DNA of 64,000 bases from Synechococcus sp. KORDI-100 (GTDB lineage: Bacteria; Cyanobacteriota; Cyanobacteriia; PCC-6307; Cyanobiaceae). The stretch covers positions 2,604,001 through 2,668,000 of the forward strand of contig NZ_CP006269.1 in assembly GCF_000737535.1 (NCBI RefSeq), read 5' to 3'. This document shows positions 43,359 through 49,772 of this stretch, piece after piece (within the stretch, counting starts at the first letter, position 1; each line of letters starts with the position of its first letter). The position numbers and the translations under genes are program-made. The notes under the pieces were generated by a model. That model was not told the origin of the DNA. It made no database searches and saw nothing but the letters and a program-made list of their open reading frames with translations.

Positions 43359-44510
43359 ATGCGACGGATCACCGACGTGCGCCTGCCCGCCCCCGAGCCT
43401 GGGGCATCGGATGCACTCCACTGGCTGGAGCTGGACAGCCGCGGGACCATCGTCGACATCCAGCCAACCGCAGGAGGCGAATCCCTGGCGGGTGAATCCT
43501 GGTGCGGTGACTGGGTCAGCCCGCGCGGCATCGATCTGCAGATCAACGGCGGGCTGGGACTGGCCTTTCCCGAACTCACCAGCGACGATCTGCCACGCCT
43601 GATCGAACTGCTCGATCAGCTCTGGGCCGATGGTGTGGAGGCCATCTCCCCAACGCTGGTGACCTGTGGCATCGAACCACTGCGGGAGGCCCTGGGGGTG
43701 CTGCGCCAGGCCCGTAGCCTGCACGAGCCCGGCCGCTGCCGGTTGTTGGGTGCCCATCTGGAAGGTCCGTTTCTGGCAGAAGCCCGTCGCGGTGCACACC
43801 CGTTGGAGCATCTGGCCCCACCGAGTCTCACGGCACTGAAGCAACGCATCGCTGGCTTTGAAGACGACATCGCTCTGATGACCCTGGCTCCAGAACTGGA
43901 GGGCGCCGATGCGGTGATCGCTGAGTTGCAGGACCACGGTGTGCTGGTGGCACTGGGACACAGCGCTGCCAAGGCGGAGGACGCCAAGAAGGCGTATGCA
44001 GCAGGGGTCGGGATGATCACCCATGCCTTCAACGCGATGCCCGGTCTTCACCACAGAGCGCCCGGGCCCCTGGGAGAAGCCTGCCGGCAAGGCGGGATTG
44101 CCCTCGGGCTGATCGCCGATGGCGTGCATGTGGCGCCCACGATGGCTGTGCTGCTGCAGCGCCTCGCTCCAAAGCAGATCGTGCTGGTGAGCGATGCCCT
44201 GGCTCCTTATGGCCTGGCGGATGGCGAACACCGTTGGGATGAACGGGTGCTGCTGGTTCGCAACGGCACCTGCCGCCTGGAGGATGGGACCCTCGCGGGA
44301 GTCACGCTGCCGCTGCTCGAAGGCGTGAAGCGGCTGGCCAGCTGGACTGAACGACCGGGTGCAGCCATCTGGAGTGCCACGGTCGCCCCTCGACTGACGA
44401 TCGACCTGGCGAGCAGCCTTGGCAACAGCCTGATTGGCCAGCCTCTGAACACGCTGCTGCGCTGGAACCAAAGCGAGACCGGTGAGCTGAGCTGGCAGAG
44501 CGCTGCTTAA
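43359..44510 (+). CDS. nagA: N-acetylglucosamine-6-phosphate deacetylase
   Basis: The 383-residue amidohydrolase removes acetate from GlcNAc-6-phosphate, leading to amino-sugar recycling. The N-terminal [15 protein letters not shown] resembles the E. coli-type DVQLNG form rather than an HxH metal site. HLEGPF has the metal-ligand Glu, [13 protein letters not shown] and [16 protein letters not shown] carry the His ligands, and [12 protein letters not shown] has the catalytic Asp. It stands 0.8 kb from the end of the chitinase gene, with chlM between them. A chitin-to-GlcNAc link is possible, but nagA also serves cell-wall recycling. Confidence 0.93.
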
Positions 44511-44536: not shown

Positions 44537-45250
44537 ATGGCCCCTGATCAGCTGCTGGAGCAGAAACAGGCCGAGAAGCAGGAGGTGAAGGGCTATTTCG
44601 AAACCACAGGGTTTGACCGCTGGAACCGCATCTACAGCGAAAGCGACGATGTGAACAAGGTGCAGCGCAACATCCGCATCGGTCATCAGAAAACCGTGGA
44701 TGAAGTGCTGGCCTGGATCAAGGACAGTGGTGCGCTCAGCGACGTGAGCTTCTGCGATGCCGGCTGTGGTGTCGGCAGCCTCAGCCTGCCGCTGGCGGCC
44801 ATGGGAGCAGGTTCGATCAGTGCCAGCGACATCTCAGAGGCCATGGCCCAGGAGGCGGAGCGCCGGGCCCGCGAGGCTGGCCTCGACATGGCCAAGCTCA
44901 ACTTCTTCGCCAGCGACCTGGAAAGCCTGAGCGGCTCCTTCCACACGGTGTGCTGCCTGGACGTGTTCATTCATTACCCCCAGCAACCGGCTGAGGAGAT
45001 GGTGAAGCACCTCTGCGGCCTCACCGAACAGCGGTTGATCGTGAGCTTTGCGCCCTACACGCCGCTGCTGGCACTGCTGAAGGGCATTGGCCAGCTGTTC
45101 CCGGGCCCCAGCAAAACCACCCGGGCTTACACCCTCAAGGAAGACGGCATTGTGAGCGCCGCAGAAGCCTGCGGCTTCAAGCTGGAGCGCCGCAGCCTGA
45201 ACAAAGCACCCTTTTATTTCTCCCGCCTGATCGAGTTCCGCAAAGCCTGA
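44537..45250 (+). CDS. chlM: Mg-protoporphyrin IX methyltransferase
   Basis: The 237-residue enzyme transfers a methyl group from SAM to Mg-protoporphyrin IX in chlorophyll synthesis. Features are the N-terminal EVKGYFETTGFDRWNRIYSE, typical of ChlM/BchM, SAM motif I CDAGCGVGSLSLPLAAMGAG (about 75-94) and ASDISEAMAQEAERRA. The conserved FAPYTPLLALLKGIGQLFPG and YFSRLIEFRKA end follow. It lies 26 bases after nagA on the same strand and ends near a bidirectional hairpin. Confidence 0.96.
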   Translation: MAPDQLLEQKQAEKQEVKGYFETTGFDRWNRIYSESDDVNKVQRNIRIGHQKTVDEVLAWIKDSGALSDVSFCDAGCGVGSLSLPLAAMGAGSISASDISEAMAQEAERRAREAGLDMAKLNFFASDLESLSGSFHTVCCLDVFIHYPQQPAEEMVKHLCGLTEQRLIVSFAPYTPLLALLKGIGQLFPGPSKTTRAYTLKEDGIVSAAEACGFKLERRSLNKAPFYFSRLIEFRKA

Positions 45251-45343: not shown

Positions 45344-48300
45344 TCAAACCAGGCTGGTGAAATCCGACAGGCTGAAATCGCCGTTGCCGCCAATGATGGC
45401 GTCGAATTCAGGGGCGCGACCGATCACCTCGGCATAGCTCGCCCCCTGGCGCAGCAGATCATCGGCAGCCTCCACGAGGCTCGCCTCACCTTCAGCGTCG
45501 TTGCTGAGAGCCCAGAACATCATTCCGCCCAGCCCCTTCTCCTCCACGTAGGCCGCTTTACCGGCAATGGTGGCTGTGGTTTCCATGGAGCTCCATTCGT
45601 CTCCGTCGTAGAGGAACGCCGCCTTGTTGTCGTCGTCCCAATAGAGGTTGCGGGTTCCCGTGACGACATCGTTGAGGACATCTTTGTAGTCGTAGACGCC
45701 CGCCTCGAAGGAACCGGTGGCATCACGGCCGGAGCCGGGCTGCTGGTAGCCGAAGCTTCCACCATCGGAGACGTTCCCCCAGGCGCGGGTGTAGGCCGGG
45801 GCCCCCATCACGACCTTGCTGAGCTCAACACCAGCCGACTCGAACACATCGACAGCCCCGGTGACGTCGTAGTTGTTGGCGTCGCCAGTCATCGCAGCCT
45901 GATGCCCCGTCATGTTCTCCCAACCGCCGTGGAAGTCGTAGGTCATCACGTTGTAGAAGTCGACGTAAGGATCGATGCCTTCAAGGTTGAGGTTGGCGAG
46001 CTTCTCTTCGCCACCAGCGGTGGCAATCGACACCTCAAAGTCGCGCCCTGTGCGGTCCGAGAGATCATCGAGGGCCGTGCGCAGATCGCGCAGCACCAAC
46101 TCAAAGTTGGCACCATCACTGGCGGAAACCGCATTGCCGGCCTTGCCACCGCCGCCCGGGTATTCCCAATCGAAATCGACCACGTTGAAGAAGTCGTAGG
46201 TCTCGAAAATGCGGACGGTCTCGCTGACGAACTTGTCGCGACCCTCCTGGGTGGCGTAGGCGGTGCTGAACTCATCGGACAGCGTCCAACCGCCCAGGGC
46301 AAAGCCGAGGTTGACCTCCGGATTGAGTTCCTTGAAGCGACGCAACTGCTCAAAGTTGCCGGCGTCGTTGGTGCCAACGCCGTTCCAACCCACCGGAACC
46401 GACGTCACCGTGATGGCATCGCCGTTCTGCGTGGTGTTGTAGCGCCCTAAGTTGTCGTAAATGTCCAACAACTCCGGTGCCATGGCGGCGTACTCACTGG
46501 CGCTGAAGCTGCGGCTGACCTGATCGGCCTCAGGGAAGCGTTTCTGCAAAGCTGCAAATTCGTCGAACAACGTGATCGACCCATCCGCCTTCACATCGAA
46601 GAAGCTGTAATTCATGTGGGTCATCGACTGGCCGTCGACATCAGACAGATTCACGTCACGGCTGTAAATACCCCACTCCTCGAAGTAGGTCACAACCCGC
46701 TTGTCGGTTGTGCCATTGGGGCGGTCGTAGTCGATGGTGACCGTGCCGCCCTCCGTCACTGGAGTGCTCTCAGTCACAAAGCTGTTTTCAATAACAGCGC
46801 TGTCTTCCAAGACTGAGTCGTCTTCAGAGACCTGGCTGTCCTCAGTCCCAGCGACCTCGCTATCAGTGGCCTCAACAGCGTCACCGGTATCGGGCTGTTG
46901 AGGAGTATCGGGCTGTTGAGGAGTATCAGGCTGCTCAACCACAGATGAGTCAGGCTCCGACTCAGCCTCGAACTCTTGCTGAGGCACCTCGGCGGCAGTT
47001 GAGGCGAGATCAAACACCTGATTGGGATCAACAACGTCGCCGGAGCCCTGGTAATAAGAGCTCTGCGCAGAACCTGCGGCCAGGGGGGCTGACCAGGACT
47101 TAGGACTCAGGGTGACGATGTAGCGGCCATCGTCACGGAGCGAATTGGTGAACTCGAAGTTGCTGACGCTCTTCAACGGTGCATCGGAGACAAAGCTCAC
47201 CGTCCAGTCGGTGCCGACCGACATGCCGCTGGTGTTGGTCACCGTGACGTTGCCAGCGAAGGTCCCTGACCAACCATCGGTGATCGTGGCGGACACCACC
47301 AAGCCGGACGCAGCGGGTTCAACCTCATCGGAAGGCTCAGGACTTGGTGGTTCGGAATCGCTGGCCATGTCCATGCCGGACTCCGTGCCCATCTCGCCAT
47401 CCATCTCCATCTCTGGATCCATGTCCGTCTCGGAATCCATGTCCATATCCGGATCCATCTGCATGGAGCCGTGCTCGCCCATGGAATGGCTGTCGTGGGG
47501 GGGCTGCTCGTTCACCGCCGCATCACCGGACCGGGTCTGGAAACCATCCGTCAGCTCACCGGCAGGCGCTTCGGGGGTCAGCAGAGCCGTGCGGTCCTTG
47601 AGCGTCAACGAGTCGACCGAGCGACGAAAGGGGACTTCCAGGTTGTCTTCGACGATCTGGTCGAAGTGGAATTCCAGGCTGGCCCCAGGAATGTCGTCCA
47701 GGTTGGTGTTCTTGAAGATGAAGGTCTGCCCGGTGGGCTCGGTCGAAATGACCAGATCAGCACCGTCCTGCGTGACTGAGAGGCGCTCGCGAGTGCCGTA
47801 ATAGAGAAAACTGATCTTGTCGGTGGCCGGATCAAAGTCGGCGATGGTCTCGACCTTGCCGTATTCGTGGGAACGGATGTAGGTGGTATTCGGGTCTTTC
47901 TCACCGATGCCCAACTCCCAGGACACTACACCGCCCAGGTCCTGGCGTAGGTGTTCATTGCCGACAACGCCGTAGTCCTCCAGAGCCAGCTGGTCGTAGG
48001 TCACCCCCACGAGGGTCATCTTCTGGGCGTCATTCCAGGGGCTCAGAAACGTGACGTCGCCCTCTTCGGTTTTGCCAAGAATCAGGTTGTGAACGGACTG
48101 CCCGCCGAAATCCAAACGATCGATACCGGGGCGGAAGTCAGTAACCTCCCCTGAGTAGATATCAACCTCGAAGGTGCGTGTTGGCGCATCAGTCGTCGGT
48201 GCTTCAGCCTCAGGCTGAGGTTCGGGCTCAGGTTGGGGTTCGGGTTCGGGTTGGGCCTGCGGCTCTCTATCTGGCTGCGGCTCGGGTTGGGGCTCAAGCT

Positions 48301-48688
48301 CAGATTGGAGCTCGGGCTGAGGATCGGGTGCACTGTCTTGCTCTGGCTCAGGCTCCGAGCTCTCCACGACTGAATCAACAAAAAACATCTCGTCCATCAA
48401 TGTCCCGCTGTTGGGCAGACCCACGCTGACGGCGTTGAAACTCAGGCTCAAGGAGCCTCCGGCAGGAATGGACGCACCCCAACTCGGGGGGCGAACGGTC
48501 ACCTCAAAGGAGCCATCCCCCAGATCAACAATGTCATAGGTGGACGACCAAACCTGAACATCTTTTTGGTTGGTACGAAACGTGTAGGACCAGTCGCTGA
48601 GGGCGGTATCCCCAGTATTTGTCAGAGTCAGCTGACCCGACATTCCTCCCCAATAAAGACTGCCAGAAACAGACGATTGAAGTGCCAA
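45344..48688 (-). CDS. Large modular GH18 chitinase with CBM2-like modules
   Basis: The protein is 1114 residues with a TTG start at 48688; a TAA lies only a few codons upstream and no better start is visible. Order: a CBM2-like beta module (about 5-103: SGSLYWGGMSGQLTLTNTGD); a Pro/Glu/Gln linker (about 108-168); a domain of unknown type (about 169-375: DFDPATDKISFLYYGTRERL); a Met/Asp-rich acidic linker (about 400-440); a second CBM2-like module (about 459-553: DGWSGTFAGNVTVTNTSG); a QPDTPQ-repeat acidic linker (about 560-640); and a GH18 barrel (about 655-1085). The barrel has VVDFDWEYPGGGG with the acid E842, VMTYDFHGGWENM and MMFWALSNDAEG. It should cut beta-1,4 GlcNAc polymers. No N-terminal signal peptide is visible; the hydrophobic C-terminus (SLSDFTSLV) would suit type I secretion, an inference. 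Confidence 0.9.
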   Translation of the reverse strand: MALQSSVSGSLYWGGMSGQLTLTNTGDTALSDWSYTFRTNQKDVQVWSSTYDIVDLGDGSFEVTVRPPSWGASIPAGGSLSLSFNAVSVGLPNSGTLMDEMFFVDSVVESSEPEPEQDSAPDPQPELQSELEPQPEPQPDREPQAQPEPEPQPEPEPQPEAEAPTTDAPTRTFEVDIYSGEVTDFRPGIDRLDFGGQSVHNLILGKTEEGDVTFLSPWNDAQKMTLVGVTYDQLALEDYGVVGNEHLRQDLGGVVSWELGIGEKDPNTTYIRSHEYGKVETIADFDPATDKISFLYYGTRERLSVTQDGADLVISTEPTGQTFIFKNTNLDDIPGASLEFHFDQIVEDNLEVPFRRSVDSLTLKDRTALLTPEAPAGELTDGFQTRSGDAAVNEQPPHDSHSMGEHGSMQMDPDMDMDSETDMDPEMEMDGEMGTESGMDMASDSEPPSPEPSDEVEPAASGLVVSATITDGWSGTFAGNVTVTNTSGMSVGTDWTVSFVSDAPLKSVSNFEFTNSLRDDGRYIVTLSPKSWSAPLAAGSAQSSYYQGSGDVVDPNQVFDLASTAAEVPQQEFEAESEPDSSVVEQPDTPQQPDTPQQPDTGDAVEATDSEVAGTEDSQVSEDDSVLEDSAVIENSFVTESTPVTEGGTVTIDYDRPNGTTDKRVVTYFEEWGIYSRDVNLSDVDGQSMTHMNYSFFDVKADGSITLFDEFAALQKRFPEADQVSRSFSASEYAAMAPELLDIYDNLGRYNTTQNGDAITVTSVPVGWNGVGTNDAGNFEQLRRFKELNPEVNLGFALGGWTLSDEFSTAYATQEGRDKFVSETVRIFETYDFFNVVDFDWEYPGGGGKAGNAVSASDGANFELVLRDLRTALDDLSDRTGRDFEVSIATAGGEEKLANLNLEGIDPYVDFYNVMTYDFHGGWENMTGHQAAMTGDANNYDVTGAVDVFESAGVELSKVVMGAPAYTRAWGNVSDGGSFGYQQPGSGRDATGSFEAGVYDYKDVLNDVVTGTRNLYWDDDNKAAFLYDGDEWSSMETTATIAGKAAYVEEKGLGGMMFWALSNDAEGEASLVEAADDLLRQGASYAEVIGRAPEFDAIIGGNGDFSLSDFTSLV
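46887..46940 (-). repeat. 18-bp tandem repeat in the chitinase linker
   Basis: Three 18-bp units start at 46887, 46905 and 46923, the third diverged. They encode the repeated hexapeptide QPDTPQ in the linker just before the GH18 domain. The frame is maintained, as in other slippage-expanded Pro/Gln/Asp linkers of secreted glycosidases. Confidence 0.85.
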
Positions 48689-48823: not shown

Positions 48824-48875
48824 CATCCCCAAAATAGGGGATGACAATGACTTAAAAAGTCCCCCAGTCGGGGGG
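48824..48875 (-). terminator. Two adjacent terminator-like hairpins at the end of the RluA-like gene
   Basis: On the minus strand a stem of five G-C pairs (48861-48865 with 48870-48874) and the loop GACT is followed by five T (48854-48858). The hairpin lies within the last codons of the RluA-like gene and the T tract runs into its TAA stop. Seventeen bases further on, a 7-bp stem (48824-48830 with 48837-48843) forms a second hairpin. The pair probably ends RluA-like transcription before the chitinase promoter region. The rest of 48689-48851 is AT-rich with no gene seen. Confidence 0.7.
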
Positions 48876-49772
48876 AAGAGAAGACTGCAAGGCCAATCCT
48901 CCAGCCACCAGCCGCCAGGCATGCAGCCGATACCCCCCATCCCCTGGCGTTGCTGTGGATGAAATCTCACGATCCAGCAGATAGAGCAGATCCCCCAGCA
49001 AGGGGCTGCCCAGCTGCGCCAGATGAATGCGGATCTGATGCGGCCGCCCCGTGCTGATCGTCACCTGCAAACGATCGCCCTCAGCCGTGCGCTCCAACAG
49101 CTCCAGCTCGGAGTGGGCTGGAAGCCGTTTGCGGATTGGCTGCTCTTTCAGCGGTTCCGGCCCCCAGATCCAACCCAGCAGAGGATGCGGCCGTTCCACC
49201 ACATCACTGCTCACCGTCAAACACTGCCCCAGCTCCAAGCCCGGCACCCGCCGACTCCAGGCTTGATATACCTTGCGGCAACCACCATCGGGCCGGAATT
49301 GCCTCGACCAGAGGGCGCGCGTTTGGGGACTGCGAGCACAGACCTGCAGACCGGAGGTGAATCGCCCCAGGCGGTGCACCGGCCGCGCACAGGTGGGTTC
49401 AAGCAAGGCGGTGAGCGTGTGGCGCAGGAAACCTCCTCCGGGCATCACCGGCAAACCGGAGGGCTTGTTGATCACCAGCAGGTCGCCATCGTCGTGGATC
49501 GTCTCCCACTGATCGGAAATGGCCGGCTCCAACCAGGGAGGACGCCGCCAGAGAATCGATTCACCCCCTCGCAACAACCGATCCGCCTCAAGGCGCTGGC
49601 CATCGCAATCCAGCTCTCCGTTGACGATCCGCTCAAGCCATAACTCCGCAGCGGAGTGGCGATAGCGCCTGGCCAGCCAGTCGCTCAAAACGATGCCAGC
49701 CTCAGCCGTTGGCACCCGATCCCGGTAGACCCAGCCGTCGTTGAACGCCGCCTCGCGCCAGCCAGGCTTCAA
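48852..49772 (-). CDS. RluA-type pseudouridine synthase-like protein lacking the catalytic Asp
   Basis: The 306-residue protein has an S4-like N-terminal part (about 28-80: VLSDWLARRYRHSAAELWLE), then the RluA core with LLVINKPSGLPVMPGGG, PVHRLGRFTSGLQVCA, CRKVYQAW and STGRPHQIRIHLAQLGSPLL. In RluA enzymes the active-site loop is HRLDRxTSG; here position 136 is Gly, so the Asp that attacks the base is missing. It may be a diverged non-catalytic relative or a lineage form with a different mechanism. It overlaps the response-regulator stop by 4 bases. Confidence 0.85.
   Translation of the reverse strand: MKPGWREAAFNDGWVYRDRVPTAEAGIVLSDWLARRYRHSAAELWLERIVNGELDCDGQRLEADRLLRGGESILWRRPPWLEPAISDQWETIHDDGDLLVINKPSGLPVMPGGGFLRHTLTALLEPTCARPVHRLGRFTSGLQVCARSPQTRALWSRQFRPDGGCRKVYQAWSRRVPGLELGQCLTVSSDVVERPHPLLGWIWGPEPLKEQPIRKRLPAHSELELLERTAEGDRLQVTISTGRPHQIRIHLAQLGSPLLGDLLYLLDREISSTATPGDGGYRLHAWRLVAGGLALQSSLPPDWGTF

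What the first reader, a model, noticed from the sequence alone, without database searches (positions are those of the whole stretch)
45344..48688. Very large free-living cyanobacterial chitinase with two CBM2-like modules and no classical signal peptide
A 1114-residue GH18 enzyme with two separated CBM2-like modules and three low-complexity linkers stands in an otherwise core-gene region, 0.8 kb from nagA. Chitin use has been described for some marine picocyanobacteria, so this strain may bind or degrade chitin particles. The absence of an N-terminal signal and the acidic, hydrophobic C-terminus point to non-Sec export, possibly type I.
Basis: partly seen in the sequence, partly recalled or inferred. 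Interest (0 to 1): 0.6.

Follow-up and report, generated by a model that had tools for sequence, protein, structure and literature searches.

The report
Secreted chitinase ChiA of marine Synechococcus
This is a chitin-digesting enzyme that some ocean cyanobacteria release; the same enzyme is already proven in a relative (Synechococcus WH7803), so the gene is a new member of a known family, but it carries an unnamed middle domain that may bear on how it leaves the cell.

Summary
Observation confirmed: 45344-48688 (-) encodes a 1114-aa protein (TTG start conserved in close relatives) with a GH18 chitinase domain (E 6.6e-70), two CBM2 modules (residues 14-90, ~467-554) and three low-complexity linkers, and no room for a signal peptide. 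It is the orthologue of ChiA from Synechococcus WH7803 (same domain order; GH18 part ~90% identical), whose deletion abolishes extracellular chitinase activity (PMC10651935). Published exoproteomics already says these chitinases are abundant outside cells without a signal peptide (PMC4949707). So it is not new in kind, nor unusually large (relatives about 900-1350 aa). nagA nearby is conserved synteny regardless of chiA. Type I export is plausible (two HlyB-HlyD pairs, pI 4.05, no Cys) but unproven.

The parts
45344..48688 (-). chiA, 1114-aa secreted GH18 chitinase (orthologue of WH7803_2068)
   Evidence: ORF; Pfam GH18 and CBM_2; same domain order in WH7803 L038:8168-11341
48419..48649 (-). 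first CBM2 module, residues 14-90
   Evidence: Pfam CBM_2
48191..48364 (-). linker 1, Pro/Glu/Gln-rich, residues 109-166
   Evidence: composition
47483..48199 (-). MID domain, residues 164-402: conserved domain without Pfam family, predicted tandem beta module
   Evidence: alignment A3 with about 60 invariant columns; AlphaFold2 pLDDT 86; weak matches to C-terminal caps of RTX enzymes; no Pfam family
47324..47503 (-). linker 2, Met/Asp-rich, residues 396-455
   Evidence: composition
47027..47290 (-). second CBM2 module, residues ~467-554
   Evidence: Pfam CBM_2, 28.6 bits over cut-off 24
46721..47023 (-). linker 3, acidic Ser/Thr/Asp/Glu, residues 556-656
   Evidence: composition
45497..46699 (-). 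GH18 catalytic domain, residues 664-1064; catalytic DFDWE at 838-842
   Evidence: Pfam; Foldseek to Serratia ChiA 1.5e-26; D, D, E invariant in 22 homologues
45347..45442 (-). conserved C-terminal tail, residues 1083-1114 (RAPxFDxVxGGDGxFxxxDFTxLA)
   Evidence: alignment A1, motif at the stop codon in nearly all complete homologues; only convincing match in own genome is chiA itself
44537..45250 (+). chlM (Mg-protoporphyrin IX methyltransferase), left boundary of the chiA site
   Evidence: TIGR02021 211.6 bits against cut-off 158.9
48852..49772 (-). RluD-like pseudouridine synthase, right boundary of the chiA site
   Evidence: chlM and this gene are separated by about 63 bp in nine of twelve sister genomes without chiA; name from my reading of the sequence
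43359..44510 (+). nagA-like N-acetylglucosamine-6-phosphate deacetylase; neighbour, not part of a chiA operon
   Evidence: TIGR00221 198.5 bits, below cut-off 225.65; present with or without chiA

Best explanation
It is ChiA, the secreted endo/exo-chitinase of marine Synechococcus. Shown here: GH18 barrel with the conserved D-x-D-x-E acid, two CBM2 modules, a conserved MID domain and a conserved tail; same architecture as the experimentally proven WH7803 ChiA. Inferred: the protein leaves the cell without Sec, its CBM2 modules hold it on chitin, the GH18 domain releases chitobiose and short oligomers, and these are finished by the GH3 enzyme, NagA and NagB that the genome also encodes. Less certain inference (about one half): export is by the type I (HlyB-HlyD-TolC) route, with the RTX-cap-like MID domain and/or the conserved C-terminal tail as the recognition part. 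In this strain it acts without the two CBM2-only helper proteins known from WH7803.
For: Pfam GH18/CBM_2; PDB relatives: bacterial chitinases, best E 2.3e-85, Foldseek to Serratia ChiA 1.5e-26; catalytic D, D, E invariant in 22 homologues; WH7803 chiA aligned over residues 2-1110, same domain order, GH18 91% and MID 80% identical; WH7803 chiA knock-out loses endochitinase and chitobiosidase activity in spent medium (PMC10651935); homologues abundant in exoproteomes and without signal peptide (PMC4949707). Downstream genes in the genome: GH3, nagB-type isomerase, nagA in the window. Export: HlyB over its curated cut-off next to an HlyD at C1:456k and a second pair at C1:305k; pI 4.05, no cysteine, as usual for type I substrates (own knowledge); MID halves match C-terminal caps of RTX lipases, epimerase and serralysins; a MID-bearing GH9 relative ends in a bluetail domain. 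Own genome has only three CBM2 modules: two in chiA, one in a GH9 protein.
Against: No activity or secretion data for this strain. The first residue of the DxxDxDxE motif is N here (N/S/T in relatives). Type I: no RTX nonapeptides; MID structure matches are weak (Foldseek E 0.03, Z at most 5.4) and profile comparison of MID halves to an RTX C-terminus is not significant; the tail is predicted to be folded with the GH18 domain (pLDDT about 74-93), which fits a structural role as well as a signal. The HlyD of the C1:456k system is near-universal in the genus with or without chiA, so co-occurrence does not discriminate.
Confidence: 0.9

Rival explanations
1. Same chitinase, but exported by another route (type IV pilus-associated export, outer-membrane vesicles, or lysis) with MID being a carbohydrate- or surface-binding module rather than an export module.
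For: No RTX repeats; MID has many invariant H, E, R, W residues and travels with CBM2 in polysaccharidases, as a binding module would; freshwater ChiA relatives lack MID yet are presumably secreted.
Against: MID halves resemble caps of type I substrates; protein is acidic and Cys-free; a MID relative ends in a bluetail domain.
Confidence: 0.4
2. The enzyme's main role is not feeding but attachment to, or attack on, chitinous particles or diatoms.
For: Two CBM2 modules; PMC4949707 suggests a role against diatoms; expressed without chitin (PMC10651935).
Against: WH7803 chiA mutants attach to colloidal chitin as well as wild type; GlcNAc catabolic genes present.
Confidence: 0.15
3. A degraded or inactive chitinase homologue kept for binding only.
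For: First position of the DxxDxDxE motif is N; chiA decays in some relatives (G075, stops in frame).
Against: Open frame intact; catalytic D, D, E invariant; WH7803 orthologue, 91% identical in GH18, is required for activity.
Confidence: 0.04

Closest known systems
ChiA of Synechococcus WH7803 (WH7803_2068), PMC10651935
   Same: Order CBM2-MID-CBM2-GH18-tail; GH18 91%, MID 80%, second CBM2 77% identical; no signal peptide
   Different: Different genomic site; WH7803 has a neighbouring MID+CBM2 protein (WH7803_2069, L038:6032-7903) and WH7803_2345; this genome has neither
ChiA of Synechococcus RCC307, UW105, UW140 and marine single-cell genomes
   Same: MID, two CBM2, GH18, tail
   Different: MID is N-terminal, before both CBM2 modules; GH18 about 55-61% identical
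Freshwater Cyanobium/Synechococcaceae GH18 + CBM2 chitinases (L053-L064)
   Same: Two CBM2-like modules, GH18, same tail motif
   Different: No MID; longer N-terminal part of GH18
Serratia marcescens ChiA and Bacillus circulans ChiA1 (GH18)
   Same: Catalytic fold
   Different: About 24-27% identity; Sec-exported (own knowledge); other accessory domains
C-terminal caps of RTX type I substrates (MIS38 lipase, Serratia LipA, serralysins, alginate epimerase/lyase)
   Same: Local fold of each MID half, Z 2.5-5.4
   Different: MID is internal or N-terminal, two copies, no RTX nonapeptides, no significant sequence match

Membership tests
GH18 chitinase | Match to Glyco_hydro_18 over curated cut-off | tested here: met
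   236.7 bits against 29.6, full-length 1-317
GH18 chitinase | Catalytic DxxDxDxE with acid E and two D before it | tested here: met
   NVVDFDWE at 835-842; D, D, E invariant in 22 homologues; the first, less conserved D is N/S/T in this family
GH18 chitinase | Hydrolysis of chitin | not testable with these tools
   shown for the WH7803 orthologue by knock-out (PMC10651935)
Marine picocyanobacterial ChiA | GH18 at the C-terminal end with CBM2 modules before it | tested here: met
Marine picocyanobacterial ChiA | Sequence orthology to WH7803 ChiA | tested here: met
   residues 2-1110 matched; GH18 91% identical
Marine picocyanobacterial ChiA | No N-terminal signal peptide, found outside the cell | tested here: inconclusive
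   absence of signal met by sequence; extracellular location known only for relatives
Type I secretion (RTX) substrate | RTX nonapeptide repeats GGxGxDxUx | tested here: not met
   none by pattern; some type I substrates lack them (own knowledge)
Type I secretion (RTX) substrate | Cognate HlyB-HlyD exporter in the genome | tested here: met
   two pairs, one HlyB over the TIGR01846 cut-off (735.6 against 725.55); HlyDs below the TIGR01843 cut-off; none next to chiA, so that either is cognate is not shown
Type I secretion (RTX) substrate | C-terminal uncleaved secretion signal recognised by the exporter | not testable with these tools
   a conserved tail exists but is predicted folded
Type I secretion (RTX) substrate | RTX C-terminal cap fold | tested here: inconclusive
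   weak structural matches of both MID halves, Z at most 5.4; no sequence-profile match

The most novel reading that the evidence does not exclude
MID is an unrecognised export module: a tandem of RTX-cap-like folds, free of RTX repeats and placed inside or at the N-terminus instead of at the C-terminus, that marks Sec-independent polysaccharidases (GH18, GH9) for type I export in picocyanobacteria and roseobacters.
Probability: 0.15. Interest if true: 0.65.

Novelty: new member of a known kind. Interest (0 to 1): 0.28.

Why it matters
The chitinase itself adds one more genome to the known chitin-using marine Synechococcus. What could matter is the export question, which the published work leaves open ('non-classical'): the MID domain and the conserved tail give two definite pieces to delete in a strain (WH7803) where clean knock-outs and an activity assay already exist. 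The clean empty site between chlM and rluD also makes gain and loss of chitin use traceable strain by strain.

Tried and rejected
Tail as a general secretion tag: rejected, profile search of the own genome finds only chiA and one chance match at E 0.89. Tail as EF-hand-like calcium loop: the first ligand position is I/V, so not adopted (reading). nagA-chiA operon: rejected, opposite strands, chlM between, nagA stays when chiA is absent. Remnant of chiA in relative G267, whose chlM-rluD gap is about 560 bp: no convincing match. Exporter co-occurrence: HlyD of the C1:456k system is near-universal in the genus, the other one scattered, so uninformative. PDB sequence search with the MID profile: nothing above chance. 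RTX C-terminus of a Ruegeria protein against MID halves by hhalign: not significant, while MID halves against repeats of the neighbouring Ruegeria protein are (93-95% probability).

Full report
Observation. The open frame at 45344-48688 on the minus strand encodes 1114 residues from a TTG codon. The DNA before the TTG diverges among relatives while the codon and the protein after it are kept in sister genomes, so the start is credible. Pfam finds one GH18 domain (664-1064, E 6.6e-70) and two CBM2 modules (14-90 and ~467-554) over the family cut-off. Three low-complexity linkers separate the parts. There is no signal peptide: CBM2 starts directly after the start codon and no 19-residue stretch is strongly hydrophobic.

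What it is. All close relatives are chitinases of marine Synechococcus. WH7803 ChiA (WH7803_2068) has the same order of parts and is 91% identical in the GH18 domain. The 2023 paper PMC10651935 describes it as GH18 plus two CBM2 and shows by CRISPR deletion that it is required for endochitinase and chitobiosidase activity in spent medium. The 2015 exoproteome paper PMC4949707 found these chitinases outside cells, 8.5% of the RS9917 exoproteome at the most, with carbohydrate-binding domains in the N-terminal half, no signal peptide, and predicted non-classical secretion.

Domain anatomy. It has no Pfam family and no relative of known structure by sequence. Sixteen copies share about 60 invariant columns. 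It sits between the CBM2 modules in WH7803 and in the genus of this strain, but in front of them in RCC307, UW105, UW140 and marine single-cell genomes; freshwater relatives lack it. It also occurs in CBM2-GH9 cellulases of related cyanobacteria (L081-L085, L136), in a CBM2 protein next to chiA in WH7803, and in a Ruegeria plasmid protein next to an RTX calcium-binding protein. In 386 genomes over the phylum it was found in only 14, 12 of them in the picocyanobacterial family. AlphaFold2 gives a confident model (pLDDT 86). No Foldseek match is significant (best E 0.034), but four of the first five are RTX lipases and the fifth an RTX toxin domain; realigned, the rows are mostly type I substrates, chiefly their C-terminal caps, matched by one half of MID or the other, with Z up to 5.4; other repeat proteins also appear lower in the list. 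This is suggestive only: such Z values can mean a common arrangement.

Tail. Nearly all complete homologues end with RAPxFDxVxGGDGxFxxxDFTxLA at the stop codon; some marine single-cell forms continue for further residues. The profile finds nothing else convincing in this genome. The model folds it with the catalytic domain, so it may be structural.

Export. The genome holds two HlyB-HlyD pairs, one HlyB above its curated cut-off. The protein is acidic (pI 4.05) and Cys-free. One MID-bearing GH9 relative ends in a bluetail domain. Against: no RTX repeats, no exporter near chiA, and the more conserved HlyD is near-universal in the genus. I put type I export at about one half.

Genomic site. In genus members with chiA it lies next to chlM, nagA, purE and cysC, and in several next to rluD on the other side; in two, autotransporter-like genes lie on that side instead. 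In nine of twelve genus members without chiA, chlM and rluD are separated by about 63 bp, with an inverted repeat in those that I read; the other three have gaps of about 105, 175 and 560 bp. chiA is thus a presence/absence cassette at one site; one genome of another genus (G075) carries a decayed copy. nagA stays in place either way, so its nearness is not evidence of a chitin operon.

Wider chitin route. The genome has a GH3 enzyme, a NagB-type isomerase and the NagA-like protein. It has only three CBM2 modules, so the WH7803 accessory proteins 2069 and 2345 are absent; in WH7803 loss of 2345 lowers activity.

Verdict. A real, intact ChiA; new member of a known kind; low to moderate interest. 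The open part is the MID domain and the export route.

Noticed in passing
G000:C1:2687785-2690592 (L069:3785-6592), outside the window: A second CBM2 protein of this genome: 936-codon frame with GH9 cellulase (E 1.1e-131) and one CBM2, also without an evident signal peptide. A cellulase in a marine picocyanobacterium seems little described.
   Followed up: partly
L042:5078-8524, L043:6944-10381, L059:6944-10369: Three ChiA relatives from marine MAGs have a conserved N-terminal extension MKGYxxALLSASLMSLSxPPMA in front of MID that looks like a signal peptide; either a lineage with Sec export or an upstream start artefact.
   Followed up: no
L090:927-2744 (-), L091:2183-4057 (+): CBM2 proteins of related cyanobacteria with a chitinase-like middle part end in a single module that resembles one half of MID, that is, at the C-terminus where a type I signal would be.
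   Followed up: partly
L086:11064-14783, L088:10886-18001: In two sister genomes large autotransporter-like genes (PATR repeats and beta-domain confirmed in the first) lie directly beside chiA instead of rluD.
   Followed up: no
L112:2739-3296 (G267): A close relative without chiA has an approximately 560-bp chlM-rluD gap with no convincing chiA remnant.
   Followed up: yes
L137 (G075:C1:938000-944500): Pseudogene of chiA with several in-frame stops, while a separate intact MID+CBM2 protein (553 aa) survives elsewhere in that genome.
   Followed up: partly
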